Assembly (NCBI GenBank): GCA_039704465.1
Contig: JASFAU010000003.1
Span: forward strand, 930,001 to 994,000
Length of the DNA stretch: 64,000 bases
Source of the DNA: Plasmodiophora brassicae
Taxonomy: Eukaryota; Endomyxa; Phytomyxea; Plasmodiophorida; Plasmodiophoridae
Direction of reading: 5' to 3'
A program made the translations under genes and the position numbers. Below, one piece after another: positions 39,974-50,413 of the stretch; position 1 is the stretch's first letter; each line of letters begins with the position of its first letter. A model generated the notes under the pieces. The model had not been told where the DNA came from. It searched no databases and worked only from the letters and a program-made list of their open reading frames with translations.

Positions 39974-41145
39974 ATGTCGTCCTGCGCTCTCGAGGGCATC
40001 CAGTCCATGAATGGGCGGGACCGTGCTGTCTGCCACCTGCCCGTTGTGCCGATCGTTACCCGGGTCAAGATGATGGCGCGTGCCCCGCCGATTCTGGTGC
40101 CGACTCCGATAACGCTTGCTATCCCGCACTGTCATACGCAGACGTCGGCCCATGTTCAGCTACCACGTGAGGTTCCGCGGCATTACCAGGAAGCCGGGGA
40201 GCAGGCCGAACTTACTGATCGTACCCGAGTGGCCGAACGGATCAACTACACGTCGAAGCAGGCCTCGCTGAAGGACGCCGACTCTAATCCTGTCCTAGAG
40301 AACCCTGGGCGGCCTGCTCACGAATGCCCGGTCTGCGCCAAAACGTTCACAAGACGGGGTGATATGGGTTAGCCGATGCGTCAGTGTTGGTGCACCCGAT
40401 GACCTATAACGATGGCAACAGTATCACATTTCAGGGTGCATGGCGGTGAGAAGAGGTTCAAGTGCTCGCACTGCGGCAAGGCCTTCCTGCGCAGTGGCGA
40501 CTTGAAGAATCACCTGGTACGCCGACCATGATTGCGATGTCTGCGCGTTGGTCGTAAAGGTGGCTTCCCTACAGGTAATCCATACGGGAGAACGGCGTTT
40601 CACATGCCCCGTCTGTCAGAAGACGTTCACACGGAGCGGGCACCTGTCCACCCACGAGCGGATCCATACAGGAGTGCGTCCGGTAACAGAAACGCGCACC
40701 GGGACATCGGGCGATCCAGGTTCGCTAATTCTCTGCGGTTGCTGCCGGCACACAGTTCGAGTGCACGGTGTGCAAGAAAGCGTTTGCCAAAGGCGACCAC
40801 CTGAAGACTCACATGCGCATCCACACCGGCGAGCGGCCGTACAAATGCTCAACGTGCCAGAAGTCGTTTACGCAGGGTTCATCGTTAAAGATCCACATGC
40901 ACGTGCAGTGAGTCGCGACGCGCCCTGGTCGCCTGAGATCGCCATCTGCTAACGCTGTCACATACAGCACTGGACTGCGGCCGTACCGATGCGCCGCATG
41001 CGACAAGACCTTTAGTCGACAAGGCGATCTCAGGACGCACGAGAGGGTCCACACGGGTGTGCGCCCGTTCGAGTGCACCACCTGTTTTCGACGCTTCAGC
41101 CGGAGCGGCGTCCTGAGGAAGCATATGGACCGGGTCCACAAGTAG
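39974..41145 (+). CDS. C2H2 zinc-finger protein, six fingers
   Basis: Exons 39974-40367, 40422-40516, 40575-40682, 40756-40907 and 40968-41145. Six fingers lie in the C-terminal half, joined by HTGERP-type linkers: [48 protein letters not shown], then CTTCFRRF, which is a seventh partly degenerate finger. Introns fall inside or between fingers. It is probably a sequence-specific DNA-binding transcription factor. The frame is open upstream to 39686 with another ATG near 39836, so the N-terminus is uncertain; 39974 is the conservative choice. The 39679-39973 stretch otherwise shows only a run of nine A. Confidence 0.82.
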
Positions 41146-41212: not shown

Positions 41213-44200
41213 TCAGTCATCTTGTGATTCCTCTGTTGGGTCGCACTGCGAAATGGACACTTTGCGCCCCGCTGTGTAGCAGGCGTCGCAAACCTTCACA
41301 GACGACATCTCGATGAGCTTGCCGTCCTTGTTCAACTTGGGCAGCACGACGCGTCGCGACTGGCACGCCGAGTCCACGGCCTGGTCGCACATGACGCAGA
41401 CATGCTTGCGGTTGAACACGTTGAAGTACTTGAGGCACAACGCGCACGTGTCAGGAAGGGCGGATGAGTGGGTTCGTCCCGTCTTCGCCTTTACCGCTAC
41501 GCCAGAGATATGTTAGAGGCGACATCGTCTGATGCCCGCACGAGCCTGACCTTCTTGCCGAGCAGTGTGCTTGTGGACGGCCACTGGTGCCAGTTCGGTA
41601 ATGGTCTTGGCCCAACGGGATCGCTCTTGCTCAGACTTGCAGAACAGGATCAGCGTCTTCTTGACGTTCGTGATTTGCAATGCAAGTTGCAGCGCAGACG
41701 CGTTGGACGAGCGCAGGCGCGACAGCATCCCGCTCGTAACTTCAACAGGTTCGGCGCGGCAAAGGATCAGGTGGATGACGCGCGGCTTCTTGATAATCGT
41801 CGACGATTTCTCAATACTGCCATACAGGATGACATCGTTGAAGAGGTGCACCCTGTGAAGCAACGCAGCACGGCCGCCCTGGCATAGACGTAAGAATTCA
41901 CCCGTCATCACCAGTTGCCTGCCGCTCTGATGCAACGCCTATTTGACAGGTGTCAGCGTGTCCCCCAAGTTCAGCAACCACAGAGCAGATAACATACTAT
42001 TGGGGCGGAAAGCGTCAGCTGGACTTGGTTGAGTGCTTCCATCATGCTCGACTGGGTCATGTTGGCCTTGATTGTCTGGATAACGTCCACGAGCTGCTCG
42101 CATGCCGCCTTGACAGACGTTTTACATGAAGCCGCGTGCTTGACGACCCATTCCTGCGACATGTAATCTCCTGACAGCAACACGAGCTTCTGCTTATCAG
42201 CGCTGTCTTTCGTCGTGTAAATGTACGACACCCGAGCCAGTATCGACAGGAACGATTGCGTCTCCTCAGGCAGCGACAACCTGCGTTCAGGTTCGTCAGG
42301 GCACGGCCGCGATGGCACGGCTGTCGCGTTACGGACAGTGTCGAAAGAATCACGCCATGCATGAGGCCCGTCGCGACAGAGAACGACTGCGACGATTTGT
42401 TCCGAATGTTCGCCTCTACATGGGCAGCGAAGCACCCCAGGAATTGGACCCAGGTCGCCTTGAACATCGCCAGCATGATCGATGGGGTATCGCTTTGCGT
42501 GAAGCGTCGTCGGAAGTACGCCTGCAGAGCGCCCATTAGTGCCCTGCATTGTATGCCATATCGTGATGACGTGCCTCGTTCCTGATAACGGCTAGAGCGT
42601 TGTGTACGGCGGTTTCTGAGTGCATCAGCAAAGCGTTCGCCACCTGGGAGGCCTGCCCGCGAATATGAGAATTGGGTGTACAACGATGCCAGGCCGAGGT
42701 ACCTCGAACTTGCGAGCGGACAGACGATCCGCTCGAACGTTCAGCGGCTCCGATGCGATCTGGTCGAACAGGTCGGCCGCCTGCGATTCGGGAACGCCGT
42801 CGCTGATACGAGCGGCGATCCAGGCGGCCCGGTCAGGCAATGCCTCGCACCTATCGTGCGTGTTCTGGCTCAGCTCGATCGCTTTGTTGGCGAACAGGAT
42901 GGCAGACTGCACGGTGCCGAACGCGCCCCGGTTGTCACGACAGAACGCTTCAGCGAACGCTTCGATCAGCCTATCGCGCGCGGCAACGTCGTCCGGGATC
43001 CAGAACCCGGAATCGCTGAGGAACGTGCGAAGTGACGCTGTGAACGATCGCGACGTGAAGTCCAGCATGTCCATGTAGGCGCGCCGAAGATCGCGCATGT
43101 CGTCCCGTTCGAACACTTCGTCGCCGTCCGACGACAGCAGCAGCCCGACGTCGGCCTGCGACAGCGACGAGCTCTTGTAGAGGAACACGGCGATCGGTCG
43201 CCAGTGAATCCCTTTACCGGGCCGCTTGCCTTGTTGGCGGCGCGCGTTCTCAGATAGGACCAGGAACCGGACGGCGTCCTTCAGCGACTTTGTCGACGCA
43301 ATCGTCAAGGCCTTCTTGTAGGCGGCACCTACATCGGCGTTGCCCTTCTCGACGCGTTCGCGCCACGACGACCGTCTCCTGCTCTCGCTAGGCGACGGTA
43401 TCGTCAGCGTCGTCTTGCGAATCGATTTCCTGGGCGATAGGTCACGTTTCATGGACACGGAATCATGCAGGGCCTTCAGCGATTTAGGAGTGTCCGCCTG
43501 CAAGAACGTTGGCGTTAGTCTGTGGCCAACCAACAGAGCAGACGTTCGGTCGTACGCTGGATTTCGTGGGACTCGACGGCGACAGAGGCGGGGACGCACT
43601 CGGCGAGACCGATGCAGGCGGGTTTGGTCGCATCCGAGAAGGCTGGGATTGGTCGTCCACAAGAGACTTGCTTGCCAGCCAACGCGACTGCGTTTCCAGA
43701 AGGCGAACCATCATGTCGAGCGCGGCCTGCTGGAGCAAGCCGGCATCAGGGGCTAGGGTACCCTGCGAAGGTGCTGCGAGTTTCGCAAGGATGGAGATGA
43801 AGCGCTCGTAGATGAAGACCTGATCGCCAGCGGCGTCGTAGTTGGCATAGAGGTCCATGAGCTGTGGCGCGCTGTTCAGGACGATCTCGAACGCCTCGAG
43901 AATGTCCGTTCGCTGAAGGGAGGAGCAGGATCGGTGGTCCAACAGCTCCAGGAGGACGGAGTCGATCCATGCGCCCAGCTCGACGTTCAGCTCTCTGGCG
44001 TAGTGCTTGTACATGTGGATGAAGCACTTCAGGACGCGCTGGAACTCCCCGCGCCGATAGAAACCGGTGATGCAGCACTCGATCAGGTTCGGGACGAGGA
44101 CGCGTCGCAGCAGGAAGATGCAGTGGGGCGAGGCGCGCAGGAACACGTCGGCCTTGTCCAGGATGCGAAGCAGGTGGTCCAGCAGGCGCCCGTCCTCCGG

Positions 44201-46727
44201 TCGCGAACAGTCCTCGCTGGTGTACGACGCAGGAGGTTCGGAGACCTGCTTGCAGATCGCGATCGTGATGGCCAGCAGCTGCGCCTCCTCGTTGCGAGGG
44301 AACGCGCGCAGGCGCGACAGCATGGCGCAGATGTGATCGCGGCACCGTTCGTCCACCGCGTCGAACTCGTGCAGCGTCACGACGTCGTTCTCGGCCTCTT
44401 TGACCATGACCACCGTCTGTGTGGGCATCGTCAGAGCCGGCATGGCGAGCGTCACCGTCGCACACGACGTCGCGTACCTCGACAATGTCGGCAAGAACGG
44501 ACTCTCGGATCCAGCGGCGCACGTTGCGACCGAGTCCCGCTGTGGACTGGCACCGTCGGCACCGCTGCTTGCATCGCCCGGTGTCGGCGACCGGCGAGCA
44601 CGTGCACGCGTTGCGAACCGGCGACGACTCCACGAGCCGGTCGATCACGGAATCGCACAGCCCGAGCTCGACGTCGTCCGTCGAATACGTCATCGTCGTC
44701 TGCAGGAAATGGATCGCGGTGCGGGCGTCGATGCTGCGGACGTTCTCCTGGTACAACTGTCGCGCCGTCTTCAGGGCCAGTCGATGCAGCTGGCGGCCCT
44801 CGCCGTGCCCCGATAGCAGCGACGGGCACAGGTCCAGCAGCGTTTGCAGCATGATGTTGATCGACGGGCCCGTCATCGTCAGCGGCGTCAACGGGACGCT
44901 GGTGCTGCACCCGATCCTCAGCATCGACTGCAACGACGCGTGCGTCAGGACAGAATTCGGCGTCATCACGCAGGCACCTGCGATAAGGGTCAGGCAAGGT
45001 TCACCGAGCGCTCTGTGCGCCCTCATCGCATCACGATCCGCGTACTGAGGAGGGCCGCTGCCTGCCGGAAGTACAGGTCCTGGACGTCGTCGGGGGACAG
45101 TTCCCCCAGGTCGCCAGGTTCCTGGTCGCCCTGTGTGAAGCGCGCGAGGACGTCCCTGGGGCGGCTCTCGTAATGCAGGAACCGTCGGCCGACCGGGATA
45201 CGGTCGTCGGAGCCGTCGTCGTCGAAGTTGCTCGATAGGTTCGCCCAGCTGCCCGTGGTCGTCCGTTTGACCGGCCGGTAGCCAGCTGGGCAGTCGGGCG
45301 CCAGGGTGATCGACGTGATCGGCGCGCTTCCACCTTGCCGGTAGCACAGGTAGACGGGCTTGCCGCCGGAACCGAAGTTGAGCGACGCAGGCAGGCCCGA
45401 TACGGAACGAATGATCTGCGAACGGGCGGGGGCCGCTCTCAGACACACAGCTCATCGGCGCGACGCTTCATCGCGTACCTTCTGGAATCCCGGCGGTGGT
45501 GGCGTATCCAGATCGGCAACTTGAAGAGCAACGTCTGTGATCGGGGCCTCATCCGGCTGCCGACTGACGGCCAGGTAGAGCTGGCGATCGGGGCAGGTGG
45601 CATTCAGGTCCGCTGGAGCGCCCTCGTGATAAACCAGTTCGCTGTCGTCGTGCGGCACCTCGCCTTTGAAGTGAATAACAATATCAATACGCGTGATGGG
45701 GAGCCGATCGCCCCGGTCCAGTCCCTCGATCTGGTCGCGAAACCGCCCGTTGTTCTGCATGACCATCTCGGTGGCCTCCAGGAGCTTGCCACCTGCGTCC
45801 AGCGTTAACAGCATGTGGTGGAGCTGCCTCAGCACGTGCAGAAGGCCCCGTTCGGGTCGTTTGGCATTGTAGTCGGGTGACCTGGGAAGGCTCACTATGG
45901 AGGAGCGGACGAGCCTGGAGGCCGTCGCCTGCAGGTTCAAGATCGTCTTCCGAGCCAGGCTCTGCCTTGGCGGGGCGGCTGACGTCATCGACGCCGACGA
46001 TGTGACCGACTCGTCGAGTCGGCTGGAGCCGGCGTCGTCATCGTCACCGCTATCGTCCATGATCGGGAACAGGCGCCCGAGGACGGGAACAGGTTCCACT
46101 GGCGTCCCGCTGACGCCCACCAGGGCACTGTGTGAGACGGAAGGCCCCCGCGCCTGCGAGATGGACGCTCTAGCGAGAGCAAGCTCCTTCGGCGTGTAAC
46201 GCGCTGCTGCGGCGTCGTCCACCGGCTGGTACGCCAGGAGACCACGCTCCTGGTGCCCGATGACGATCAGGTCCTCCAGGCAATCCAGTACGGCGGCAGG
46301 CGCGCGCCCATTGAGGAGGTCGTCCGCCTCGAACGTTCGCACCGTTTCCATTTCGCGCCGCAGGTACTCCAGGAGGGCGTCGACGTTCTCGCGCGCACGA
46401 ATCGACCCAGGAGGAGCCGAATACGATATGTCGACAACGTCGGCATTGGGGTCCACTGCCCGTACTAGCTGGTACAGCACCTGCCAGGCGCGCGTATCGT
46501 TAGCGTTTCGTTCGGCAACCCCCAGGGTGGATCAACCCTACGACGCCGTTCTGGAGTTCGCCGATGAGCTTGTCCGGATCGATGTTCAGTGACAGCTGGG
46601 CGTTCACCCATTCGGTCAGGCGTACGCGCCGGCGGACGTCGCGTGATGTCCAGTCGGACGTCATTGTGACAATGAGCGACGTCGCCGCCGGGCCGGCATG
46701 CGTCGCAATCGACGCCGTTTCCGACAT
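41213..46727 (-). CDS. Giant Arf-GEF: CH, MABP-like, DCB-HUS, Sec7, PH, FYVE-like
   Basis: Eleven exons: 46542-46727, 45479-46480, 45046-45415, 44478-44977, 43556-44416, 42703-43497, 42590-42643, 42337-42521, 41998-42280, 41551-41938 and 41213-41496. They join in one frame to 1635 aa. Residues 18-150 read as a CH domain (LTEWVNAQLSL, LQNGVVLYQLVRAVDP). Residues 330-470 match MABP repeats (LYLAVSRQ, GSGGKPVYLCYRQGG). Residues 490-970 resemble the DCB and HUS of large Arf-GEFs (ITGFYRRGEFQRVLKCF, LYANYD). The Sec7 domain is at about 1060-1235, PH at about 1415-1530 and a FYVE-like zinc finger (CALCLKYF, HVCVMC, VCDACY) at the end. Large Arf-GEFs load GTP on Arf at Golgi and endosomes. The exon frames support fusion; the CH and MABP calls are from pattern only. 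Confidence 0.8.
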
Positions 46728-46940: not shown

Positions 46941-48357
46941 ATGATGGCGGAACGGCCAGCGACCTACAGACAGGCGGGGACGCCTCGCCATGGGGCGCTA
47001 TTCAGAGGACCGCCTCCTGCTCGCCCGGTGGGGAGTAAAGACCAATCGTCAACGTCGCGTTCGGTCGCATCGATTCCGTCTCGATACGAGACCGTGTTCA
47101 CGCGGCCTAAACGCCCACTACAGAAGGGATTCAGTAGCACGACGCAGAGGTTCCCCAAAGACAAGGTGAGCGTCGTCGGCACACACGTGCATGCTTGAAG
47201 GCCTTCCAGTTACGTGGCTCATGCTTGCAGCGGGAGGACGGACCGGCACCAGGACAATACCATACGCCGACGTCAGCGGTGTGGGATTCTGTATCCCTTT
47301 CGAAGAAGGGATTTGGAACTGGGTTCGCATCGAAGGCAGGCCAGGCAGTCAGGCGCATCGGGCGATCGTGCGTTCTGAATCCTTTTGACGCAGACCGTCC
47401 GTTCCCTGTCGTTTGCGGCTAGCACAGGCGCCCAGGTGCCCGGCCCGGGATCGTACGATGTCGACCAAAGCACGTCGTTTACAATCGACAACCGGCGCCG
47501 ACATTTCAACCGGCGCAGCAACGTCACGTTCGGCTCCGATCAGCGCTTTCGCAGCACGACGCCCAGCGGTCCCGGCCCGCAAGACTACCACGTCGGTCGC
47601 GATCACGTGAAGCAATTCGAACGGCGGCTGACGGTTACCCTGACAGTCAGAGAGACCGCCCGGGAGGAGCCCGGGCATCTCGTTCAGCAAAGCGCCGCGA
47701 AAGATGTTCACCGCCGCCAACAAGCAGGACGCGCCACCGCCGGGACCTGTGGACCTCGGCGCGGACGTGCACGTCCTTGACGAAGGCGCCGACGAGGCGC
47801 AGCGACAGCCACCGGCTCCTCACCCGTCCTCCATGTTCATGGGAGCAGAGTCGCCGAAGAAATCGCCCGCGTACGTTCCGCACGTGACCCGGCCCGCCCA
47901 TCGTCCACGACCTGACAGCTGTGTACGTTGTAGGCCGGGACCGGGCCCCGCCTCCTACGACGTCGACAGGAGGTTCGGGTCCGACCTGTTCCAACGAGGG
48001 TCGCTCGGGTTCTCCTCCATGTTCTCGTCCACGACCGTCCGTCGCCGACGCACCGACCAGGACAACGAACGTCGCGCGATCATGCAGGCCACGTTGGCCG
48101 CCCAGCAGCAACGTCGATACGAGAAGCCGCCCCCTGGCCGCACCATCGGGTGCCATCCGCGCCAGATCAAGGTCATGCAGATGCAGAGCGACGGGCGCGG
48201 GTGCGAGACCCGGGCGTTCCGCCCCGACACGCACCCGAAGCAGAGCGGCGGCGACGACACTGGCGGCCCCGGCCCCGCCCAGTACGACGTCGCCGCCAGC
48301 AGCGTCGTCAAGAAGTCGTTCCGGTCGCGGCGCATCCGCCACTGGGTCGGCAACTAA
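46941..48357 (+). CDS. STPG (SHIPPO/PG-rich repeat) flagellar protein
   Basis: Exons 46941-47165, 47231-47347, 47394-47591 and 47647-48357 give 416 aa. At least five PGP-type repeats are visible (PAPGQYH, VPGPGSYDV, GPGPQDYH, GPGPASYDV, GPGPAQYDV), with SFSKAPRKM between them. Proteins with this sperm-tail PG-rich repeat lie inside or along axonemal microtubules. It is divergent from the Arf-GEF with a 213-nt gap. The third intron was placed where the frame and a GTCGGT donor agree. Confidence 0.82.
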
Positions 48358-48379
48358 TACACGACGAACGAACGCGGAC

Positions 48380-48427
48380 GGGGGGGGGGGGGGAGGGATG
48401 CACAGGCGGCGCCGCCCCGCCTGTGCA
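48380..48427. promoter_or_regulatory. 14-G run followed by an 11-bp stem-loop
   Basis: 48380-48393 is a run of 14 G. 48399-48409 (TGCACAGGCGG) pairs perfectly with 48417-48427 across CGCCGCC. It lies between the STPG stop and the ABC transporter start. Possible roles are 3' end formation or 5' UTR structure. Confidence 0.6.
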
Positions 48428-48514
48428 GAGCGGGTGGCGCGGTCCCATCAAAACTGGCCGTCGTCGTGTGCTGAGGCCGCCGTGGGCCACGCTCGGGGTT
48501 GGGGGGGCGGGCCG

Positions 48515-50413
48515 ATGGGCGATGCAGGACCGGACGTGGCGTCGTCCGACAACCGCCTGGACGAGCCGATCTACGTGCGCAGGTCGAAACGGATGGTGCG
48601 GGGGCGGGCGACGGCGTCGTCGTCGTCGGCGCTGGCGCGGATCGGGGCCGTGGTCTGGGCGGGGCGCTCCTGGCAGCTGGGGGCGGTCAGCATCGCGCTC
48701 GCCGTGATGTACGCCTGGTCGTACAACTACTTCGCCGAGCTGACCGGCGACTTCACGCAAGCGGTCGTCGACCGGGACACGCGGCGCTTCTCGGCGGCCC
48801 TGTTCTGGCTGGCGCTGACCATCGTGATCGGGTCGCTGGCGTCCACCGCCATGCTGTACGTCGGCGAGCGCATGACGCTGGGCGTCTGGCGTCGCCGCCT
48901 GACCGACCACATCGCCGATCGGTACTTCCGCCCCCGGGTCAGCTTCCAGATGACGCTGCTGGACGGGCGTATCAGTGACGCCGACCAGCGCATCGCGTCC
49001 GATGTGACGGCGCTCTGCCAGCACTGCAAGATGGTCGTGTTCGGCGCGCCCATGTACATGGGCGTCCTGCCCGTCGTCATATCGACGGCCTGGTTCTGCA
49101 CGACGCTCTGGATCAAGGTCGGATGGTTCTGCCCGATCGCGTCGATCGCGTTCTTCCTCGTCTTCGCTGGGGTGAACCGGGTCCTGATGACCCGCGTCCA
49201 CGACGTCGTCAAGAAGGGGCTGGGCGCCATCGGCGCGTACCGGTTCGCCCACACGTACCTCCGCCTCCACGCCGAGACGGTCGCGTTCCTGGCCGGCCAC
49301 GATCGGGAACGGCAACGCAGCGACGCCTGCCTGGACAACGTGCTCGACTACTCCATGCAGGAATCGCGATGGCATGTGCCGATCAACTTCAACGCCAACG
49401 CGTTCTACTGGGGCACCGGCGCCATCGCATACATCGTCCCTGGCCTGGCGTGGTTCATGCTGAAGCAGGACCTCGACGTCAACACGTTCGTGGCGGTCGC
49501 CACGATCATCTCGTCGATGCTGTACCAGCTCGCGTACCTCATCCAGCTGTCCCAGGAGATCACACAGCTGCTGGCCGTGGCCGATCGCGTTGCCGAACTG
49601 CTCGACGTCCTGGACGACATTGCGGACGCCAACCAGCGCAACGACCTGCTGACCGATGACAGCTCCGACGAGGAAATGACGGCGATGATCCGGATCCAGG
49701 TGGACGGGAAGCGGACCCCGCTTCGAAGGACCAGCCCGGGCAAGTTTGTCGCCTACGATCGCATCGTGTTCGATATGGTCCAGTTGAAGACGCCAACTGG
49801 GCGGATCCTGTTCCCCGGCGGCGTCAGCTTCGCGGTCGAAGCCGGTGGCAAACGAAACGTGCTCGTGATGGGCCCGAACGGCGTCGGCAAGTCCAGCCTG
49901 CTGCGCGCTCTGGGCGACCTGTGGCCCATCCATTCGGGCCGCATCATGAAGCCGCCCGCTGGCGTGTACTATCTCCCACAACGCCCCTACCTGTCGCTCG
50001 GCACGCTTCGCGAGCAGATTGTATACCCGCTCGGCGAGGAACTCCTGAGCGATGCGGAGGCGACCAGATTGCTGACGGCCGTCCAGCTGTCGAACCGGGC
50101 AAGGGACCTGAACTTCGTATGCCCTTGGCCGGAGATCCTGTCGGTCGGCGAACAGCAGCGCCTTGGCGTTGCGAGGCTTCTGTTCCACAAACCGCGTTTC
50201 GCCATTCTGGACGAATGCACGTCGGCAATGGATGAGGACGTCGAGCAGGACATTTACCAGCTGCTGCTGAACAGCGGTGCCGGTCTCCTGTCAGTTGCGC
50301 ATCGATCAACCGTCCTACGATTTCACCACGATCTAGTCAAGATCGACCGCGATGGCCGCTGGCACATTCAGCGCCTTGAACCGCCCAAGGTCGATCTGGT
50401 TGGTGTTGTATAA
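48515..50413 (+). CDS. ABC half-transporter, ABCD/YddA-like
   Basis: A single exon of 632 aa. The ABC_membrane_2 transmembrane region spans about residues 50-345 (SWQLGAVSIALAVMYAW, FTQAVVDRDTRRF, YVGERMTLGVWRR). The nucleotide-binding domain has Walker A GPNGVGKSS, Q-loop YLPQRPY, signature LSVGEQQRLG and Walker B FAILDECTSAMDE, then the switch His in SVAHR. Subfamily D proteins import acyl-CoA into peroxisomes or cobalamin from lysosomes. The signature with GEQQRL resembles the bacterial YddA/SbmA group more than peroxisomal ABCD1-3. It is intronless and very GC-rich, unlike neighbours, so bacterial origin is possible. Substrate and organelle are unknown. Confidence 0.88.
   Translation: MGDAGPDVASSDNRLDEPIYVRRSKRMVRGRATASSSSALARIGAVVWAGRSWQLGAVSIALAVMYAWSYNYFAELTGDFTQAVVDRDTRRFSAALFWLALTIVIGSLASTAMLYVGERMTLGVWRRRLTDHIADRYFRPRVSFQMTLLDGRISDADQRIASDVTALCQHCKMVVFGAPMYMGVLPVVISTAWFCTTLWIKVGWFCPIASIAFFLVFAGVNRVLMTRVHDVVKKGLGAIGAYRFAHTYLRLHAETVAFLAGHDRERQRSDACLDNVLDYSMQESRWHVPINFNANAFYWGTGAIAYIVPGLAWFMLKQDLDVNTFVAVATIISSMLYQLAYLIQLSQEITQLLAVADRVAELLDVLDDIADANQRNDLLTDDSSDEEMTAMIRIQVDGKRTPLRRTSPGKFVAYDRIVFDMVQLKTPTGRILFPGGVSFAVEAGGKRNVLVMGPNGVGKSSLLRALGDLWPIHSGRIMKPPAGVYYLPQRPYLSLGTLREQIVYPLGEELLSDAEATRLLTAVQLSNRARDLNFVCPWPEILSVGEQQRLGVARLLFHKPRFAILDECTSAMDEDVEQDIYQLLLNSGAGLLSVAHRSTVLRFHHDLVKIDRDGRWHIQRLEPPKVDLVGVV

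What the first reader, a model, noticed from the sequence alone, without database searches (positions are those of the whole stretch)
41213..46727. One gene joins CH, MABP-like, DCB-HUS, Sec7, PH and FYVE-like modules
Eleven exons keep one frame over 1635 codons. Known large Arf-GEFs (BIG, GBF1) have DCB-HUS-Sec7-HDS, and small ones have Sec7-PH. I know of none that also carries an N-terminal actin-type CH domain, a membrane-binding MABP-like module and a C-terminal FYVE-like finger. The protein could couple actin, phosphoinositide sensing and Arf activation in one chain. This is the best candidate for an undescribed architecture in the window.
Basis: partly seen in the sequence, partly recalled or inferred. 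Interest (0 to 1): 0.78.

Follow-up and report, generated by a model that had tools for sequence, protein, structure and literature searches.

The report
Mosaic Arf-GEF relative with altered catalytic residue
The clubroot organism Plasmodiophora brassicae has one protein that joins membrane-binding, cytoskeleton-type and Arf-activator modules in an order I could not find described, and the residue that normally drives Arf activation is changed, so it may be a regulator rather than an activator.

Summary
The minus-strand gene 46727..41213 has 11 exons and encodes 1638 aa, equal to the deposited hypothetical protein PBRA_002744 of Plasmodiophora brassicae except for 3 substitutions. CH, HUS, Sec7 and FYVE pass Pfam cut-offs. 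MABP is confirmed by homologues.

The fusion is real. A paralogue on contig C13 carries MABP to PH and the start of FYVE in one uninterrupted 1494-codon exon, and aligns collinearly with the window protein (two-sequence E 2e-31 and 9e-41). A third gene (C11) shares four of seven segments.

The same change in ARNO (E156D) attenuates exchange (PMC3314957, passage). I read it as a membrane-targeted, probably weak or pseudo-GEF that diverged from an active MABP-type Arf-GEF. 'Actin-type' CH and 'Arf activation' are unproven. New variant of a known kind.

The parts
41213..46727 (-). whole gene, 11 exons: 46727-46542, 46480-45479, 45415-45046, 44977-44478, 44416-43556, 43497-42703, 42652-42590, 42521-42337, 42280-41998, 41938-41551, 41496-41213 (stop included)
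   Evidence: splice search; identical to PBRA_002744 but for 3 substitutions with these exons
46268..46622 (-). CH domain, aa 36-133, split by intron 46541-46481; its C-terminal half lies in the same exon as the first half of MABP
   Evidence: Pfam PF00307 3.6e-8, over cut-off; PDB Nav2 0.001
45164..45709 (-). MABP module, aa ~320-480, three repeats by eye, split by intron 45478-45416
   Evidence: homologues with DUF2464/MABP, best E 3.9e-42; alignment to several repeats of P0003; collinear with the C13 paralogue, which passes the DUF2464 cut-off
44478..45076 (-). region in the DCB position, aa ~510-686
   Evidence: position between MABP and HUS; similarity to the C13 paralogue 88 against a shuffle maximum of 52; identity as DCB not shown
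43829..44173 (-). HUS domain, aa 768-882
   Evidence: Pfam PF12783 3.8e-13; same place
42850..43200 (-). Sec7 domain, aa 1073-1189 by Pfam
   Evidence: Pfam PF01369 1.7e-15; six-frame genome search 7.4e-16; PDB cytohesin-1 2.3e-11
42988..42990 (-). codon of D1143, at the position of the catalytic Glu (PGEAQ -> PDDVA)
   Evidence: opposite the Glu in 32 of 32 alignment settings for 4 of 5 comparison proteins and 26 of 32 for the fifth
42193..42515 (-). HDS1 region, aa ~1262-1350
   Evidence: two-sequence profile match to full-length fungal Sec7 8ucq runs on from Sec7 (profile 1175-1487, chain 690-996); the window protein alone matched 8ucq only over Sec7; naming it HDS1 rests on position in the BIG/GBF scheme
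41591..41902 (-). PH domain, aa 1428-1531
   Evidence: Pfam 0.003, below cut-off; profile with paralogue: FARP2 2.6e-10, P-Rex1 4.1e-6, FGD5 8.1e-4
41270..41452 (-). FYVE-like finger, aa 1560-1620, seven Cys and one Asp at the eight zinc positions
   Evidence: Pfam PF01363 5.5e-8, over cut-off; alignment with the paralogue

Best explanation
A membrane-targeted relative of the large Arf-GEFs. It has a BIG/GBF-type core (DCB-position region, HUS, Sec7, HDS1) with an MABP module in front and a PH-FYVE tail like that of FGD-type RhoGEFs behind; a CH domain was found in this copy only. Shown here: the modules, their order, the paralogues, and the change at the catalytic Glu. Inferred: MABP, PH and the FYVE-like finger hold the protein on acidic or phosphoinositide-bearing endosomal membranes. 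The Sec7 domain has little or no exchange activity and instead binds Arf-GDP, or the protein pairs through its DCB-HUS part with the active C13 paralogue, so that it acts as a brake or scaffold (BIG3 is a precedent for a BIG-type protein without the Glu). CH gives a link to the cytoskeleton or to a partner.
For: Modules. Collinear paralogue with intact PGEAQ and LNTD. Catalytic Glu kept in 5 of 5 other Sec7 loci found in the genome and in a chytrid BIG, Asp only here. The deposited protein has the same PDDVA sequence. [quoted passage not shown] E156K and E156A give abortive Arf-GDP complexes (PMC2823772, passages). BIG3 lacks the Glu and is proposed not to be a GEF (PMC4096751, passages). A RhoGEF-PH-FYVE gene in the same genome resembles the tail.
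Against: Asp keeps the charge, so slow exchange is possible. DCB identity was not shown. HDS1 and PH rest on the joint profile with the paralogue: alone, the window protein is below the PH cut-off and matches 8ucq only over Sec7. No transcript, localisation or binding data. Both AlphaFold models were too poor to use (mean pLDDT 35.3 and 47.0). Activity of the C13 paralogue is itself inferred from its residues. The role of CH is a guess.
Confidence: 0.5

Rival explanations
1. A working Arf-GEF with an Asp finger: the same membrane targeting, but slow or partner-dependent exchange, perhaps on a diverged Arf or Arf-like GTPase.
For: The Sec7 domain is clearly recognisable, Asp is acidic, and the frame is intact in two sequences with 3 differences in 1638.
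Against: The second motif is also changed (LNTD -> LSQN) and residues around the finger differ (PGEAQK -> PDDVAA); E156D in ARNO is attenuated.
Confidence: 0.27
2. One reading: an actin-linked, phosphoinositide-sensing Arf activator in one chain.
For: CH, MABP, PH and FYVE are all present.
Against: Single CH, not a tandem pair; catalytic Glu changed; FYVE lacks one zinc Cys and parts of the PI3P signature (signature recalled).
Confidence: 0.12
3. A decaying copy of the family on its way to a pseudogene.
For: Catalytic and zinc-binding residues are changed here and kept in the C13 paralogue.
Against: 1638 codons are open, with third-position GC of 0.70-0.88 in 11 of 11 exons (no non-coding control run); only 3 substitutions against the deposited protein; the copy carries an additional CH domain.
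Confidence: 0.08
4. Two or more genes wrongly joined by the splice model.
For: Ten introns, and two splice sites are ambiguous.
Against: The C13 paralogue has MABP to the start of FYVE in one exon with collinear similarity; the CH C-half and MABP N-half share exon 2; the deposited protein agrees.
Confidence: 0.03

Closest known systems
BIG/Sec7 and GBF/Gea large Arf-GEFs
   Same: HUS, Sec7 and HDS1 in the same order; the two-sequence profile matches full-length fungal Sec7 8ucq at 3.9e-46 over HUS and Sec7-HDS1
   Different: No HDS2 or HDS3 found; MABP in front, PH and FYVE behind, CH at the N-terminus; catalytic Glu is Asp
BIG3 (ARFGEF3)
   Same: BIG-type protein whose Sec7 lacks the essential Glu; proposed non-GEF (PMC4096751, passages)
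   Different: The passages seen name only Sec7 and DUF1981 as its domains; presumably an independent loss
Cytohesin, EFA6 and BRAG small Arf-GEFs
   Same: Sec7 followed by a PH domain
   Different: The passages of Mouratou 2005 name PH for these and DCB/HUS/HDS for BIG and GBF; here HDS1 lies between Sec7 and PH, and the solved PH domains found were those of RhoGEFs
FGD-type RhoGEFs (DH-PH-FYVE; order recalled)
   Same: PH then FYVE at the C-terminus; a RhoGEF-PH-FYVE gene is in the same genome (L042)
   Different: Sec7 core instead of DH
MABP/DUF2464 proteins (MVB12; USP-type proteins of oomycetes)
   Same: MABP/DUF2464 repeats
   Different: 17 of 18 other proteins carry a ubiquitin-hydrolase domain and none has Sec7 among its precomputed Pfam domains

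Membership tests
Sec7-domain protein | Sec7 domain over the curated cut-off | tested here: met
   PF01369 57.5 bits, cut-off 22
active Arf-GEF | catalytic Glu of FRLPGE | tested here: not met
   D1143; 5 of 5 other loci found in the genome have Glu
active Arf-GEF | GDP/GTP exchange on Arf | not testable with these tools
   needs biochemistry
BIG/GBF | HUS domain | tested here: met
   PF12783 50 bits, cut-off 27.3
BIG/GBF | DCB domain | tested here: inconclusive
   no Pfam DCB; hhalign E 0.09-0.12; conserved with the paralogue
BIG/GBF | HDS1 | tested here: met
   joint profile with the C13 paralogue aligns with 8ucq through chain residue 996, and the window segment resembles the paralogue's (100 against shuffle maximum 52); not seen with the window protein alone
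BIG/GBF | HDS2 and HDS3 | tested here: not met
   no Sec7-like_HDS or BIG2_C Pfam match, whereas the chytrid BIG has both; PH and FYVE follow HDS1
MABP protein | MABP/DUF2464 repeats | tested here: met
   not by Pfam on this protein alone (0.96)
CH protein | CH domain over cut-off | tested here: met
   34 bits, cut-off 26
actin-binding CH protein | F-actin binding, usually a tandem CH pair (recalled) | not testable with these tools
   only one CH found
FYVE protein | FYVE domain over cut-off | tested here: met
   33.2 bits, cut-off 27.8
PI3P-binding FYVE | eight zinc ligands and WxxD, R(R/K)HHCR, RVC (recalled) | tested here: not met
   seven Cys plus Asp; RKHVCV and KVC; no W seen by eye at the expected place

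The most novel reading that the evidence does not exclude
A plasmodiophorid (perhaps wider rhizarian) family of Arf regulators, MABP-(DCB)-HUS-Sec7-HDS1-PH-FYVE, in which one member kept catalysis and another gained a CH domain and became a dedicated non-exchanging partner, so that Arf activation is set by an active/inactive pair on phosphoinositide membranes.
Probability: 0.3. Interest if true: 0.62.

Novelty: new variant of a known kind. Interest (0 to 1): 0.5.

Why it matters
Arf-GEFs are usually sorted into a few architectures. This genome has at least two genes that merge the large-GEF core with a PH-FYVE tail and an MABP module. A pair of otherwise matching proteins, one with the Glu finger and one without, is a natural test of what that residue is needed for and of how pseudo-GEFs arise.

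Tried and rejected
Two-gene reading: rejected because the C13 paralogue has MABP to the FYVE start in one exon. Chance similarity of MABP: rejected. AlphaFold of exon 10 (PH) and exon 6 (Sec7) alone, without an alignment: mean pLDDT 35.3 and 47.0, so I ran no fold search. DCB by profile comparison: E 0.09 and 0.12, inconclusive; HDS against a small BIG set 0.012; two mismatched controls 0.83 and 0.57; HDS1 was later supported. Orthologues elsewhere: the full-length search found the protein itself and one chytrid BIG at E<=0.001 (only the 7986 candidates sharing most words were scored), and the HUS-region search only itself at E<=0.01 among 237 candidates. The method needs shared 5-residue words, so distant orthologues in Spongospora, Polymyxa or other Rhizaria are not excluded; no call tests them by name. 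CH at the paralogues: 24 CH matches in the genome, none at the C13 or C11 gene; but the window's own CH, split by an intron, was not listed either, so a split CH there is not excluded. For C11 the third-member claim is partial: MABP, Sec7, PH and FYVE beat 100 shuffles against the window protein, DCB, HUS and HDS segments did not (4 of 7), and Pfam found there Sec7 and PH over cut-off, FYVE below it, and no HUS or DUF2464 at E<=1. In that same call the C13 FYVE was below cut-off because my first model misplaced its splice site; the corrected tail passes.
Full report
What is there. The window is G000:C3:930001-994000 of a 25.3 Mb genome in 21 contigs. The gene runs on the minus strand from 46727 to 41213. 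A splice search with GT-AG introns of 40-139 nt, with codon scores trained on stretches of the same region, gave 12 exons; I dropped one two-base exon by hand, which leaves 11 exons and 1638 aa. The best database match is PBRA_002744 of Plasmodiophora brassicae, 1638 aa, named by its sources 'hypothetical protein' or 'FYVE-type domain-containing'; taxonomy places the species in Rhizaria, Phytomyxea. Two splice sites differed from my model; with the choice implied by the deposited protein only 3 of 1638 residues differ. The numbering below is that of the deposited protein; Pfam positions in exons 5 to 9 shift by four.

Modules. Pfam gives CH, HUS, Sec7 and FYVE over their cut-offs, PH below it. 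MABP: on its own the protein gives only a chance-level DUF2464 match (0.96). A search with aa 318-482 returned, besides the query, 18 proteins at E<=1: one metagenome protein (E 3.9e-42; DUF2464 over its cut-off) and 17 with ubiquitin-hydrolase domains, 16 of them named as Phytophthora, Hyaloperonospora or Achlya and one whose organism name was cut off; 15 of the 18 carry DUF2464 in their precomputed domains and one more is named with 'MABP'. The module aligns to several repeats of the metagenome protein. HDS1: a two-sequence profile of the window protein and the C13 paralogue matches the full-length fungal Sec7 structure 8ucq at 3.9e-46 in two stretches, HUS (6.7e-8) and Sec7 running on through about 150 further residues (1.8e-35); the window protein alone matched 8ucq only over Sec7. 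The BIG/GBF order DCB-HUS-Sec7-HDS1-HDS2-HDS3 is from Mouratou 2005 (PMC553965, passages). The same profile finds PH domains of FARP2 (2.6e-10), P-Rex1 (4.1e-6) and FGD5 (8.1e-4), and FYVE of Vps27 (1.9e-4). DCB is a guess from position. CH: the best solved relatives are Neuron navigator 2 (0.001) and a Ras GTPase-activating-like protein (0.009).

Is it one gene? Searches of the same genome with Sec7, HUS and DUF2464 all met in one 1512-codon open frame on C13. Its exon of 1494 codons, read alone, has DUF2464 (3.9e-6), HUS (2.5e-16), Sec7 (6.5e-40) and PH (7.9e-11), all over cut-off, and with the next exon it makes a FYVE (3.3e-11 with the intron removed). BLASTP aligns the window protein to it in two collinear blocks, aa 324-912 (E 2e-31) and 1033-1618 (E 9e-41; E-values for a two-sequence comparison), about 24% identity. 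7 of 7 segments exceed the maximum of 100 shuffles made in blocks of 20 residues. A third gene, on C11, matches the window protein in 4 of 7 segments (MABP, Sec7, PH, FYVE, in the same order) and passes Pfam for Sec7 and PH only. So the architecture from MABP to FYVE is shared by at least two genes of this genome and is not a splice artefact. CH was found only in the window gene: 24 CH matches elsewhere in the genome do not lie at the other two, though a CH split by an intron could be missed, as the window's own was. CH and MABP are tied by exon 2, which holds the second half of one and the first half of the other.

Catalytic site. The genome search for Sec7 gave 8 matches at six loci. At the Glu finger the five other loci read PGEAQ (C13, C3:420595), PGESQ (C1), PVEAQ (C16) and PVETQ (C11); the window reads PDDVA. 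The second motif reads LNTD in four of the five, VNTG in C11, and LSQN in the window. D1143 lies opposite the Glu in 32 of 32 alignment settings against four proteins and in 26 of 32 against the fifth. The deposited sequence has the same residues. In ARNO the same substitution, E156D, is described as attenuated and did not trigger Arf1 recruitment to beads (PMC3314957, passage); E156K and E156A give abortive Arf-GDP complexes (PMC2823772, passages); Arf-GEFs are said to share the Glu (PMC1950683, passage). BIG3 is a precedent for a BIG-type protein without it (PMC4096751, passages).

FYVE. The paralogue has C-x2-C ... C-x2-C-x4-C-x2-C ... C-x2-C, eight Cys. The window has Asp in place of the fifth Cys, RKHVCV where RKHHCR is usual, and KVC for RVC (the usual forms are recalled). 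PI3P binding is therefore doubtful.

Where the parts come from. Among other genes of the genome, the PH-FYVE stretch also hits a gene with RhoGEF, PH and FYVE (C3:1657899-1658408, E 2.7e-6; L042: RhoGEF 1.2e-34, FYVE 2.6e-9, PH below cut-off). Inference: the tail was taken from an FGD-type RhoGEF and joined to a BIG/GBF core cut after HDS1.

How it may work. Shown: modules, order, paralogues, changed catalytic residues. Inferred: coincidence binding to membranes by MABP, PH and the FYVE-like finger; Arf-GDP capture or pairing with the C13 paralogue instead of exchange; CH as an extra link.

Print record. Full-text searches for Sec7, calponin homology, FYVE, Arf GEF, domain architecture (3 papers with four of five terms), Plasmodiophora with Sec7 (0 papers), 'MABP domain' with Sec7 (0 papers) and Sec7, FYVE, PH domain, Rhizaria, novel domain (4 papers with four of five terms) showed no description of this architecture; a broader search gave 349 papers, of which 20 were listed. 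From these I read passages of PMC8358228 and PMC8923023 and only listings of the rest. The most relevant survey, Pipaliya 2019, is not held, so I cannot say that the architecture is unreported.

Noticed in passing
40729..41145, + strand: Two C2H2 zinc-finger open frames (40729-40911, 40912-41145; Pfam); the second ends 67 bp from the end of this gene, convergent.
   Followed up: partly
47888..50413, + strand: Open frame with ABC_membrane_2 and ABC_tran; a peroxisomal-type half transporter by recall.
   Followed up: no
L042:2694-4415 (G000:C3:1656693-1658414): RhoGEF-PH-FYVE gene whose tail resembles the window protein's PH-FYVE.
   Followed up: partly
G000:C6:494562-494990, C2:288288-288515, C9:470970-471353: HUS matches on contigs where the Sec7 search listed nothing; possible Mon2-like or further diverged members.
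   Followed up: no
P0003 (metagenome protein, 1468 aa): A protein with many MABP-like repeats, after a stretch with an SMP-like match below its cut-off.
   Followed up: no
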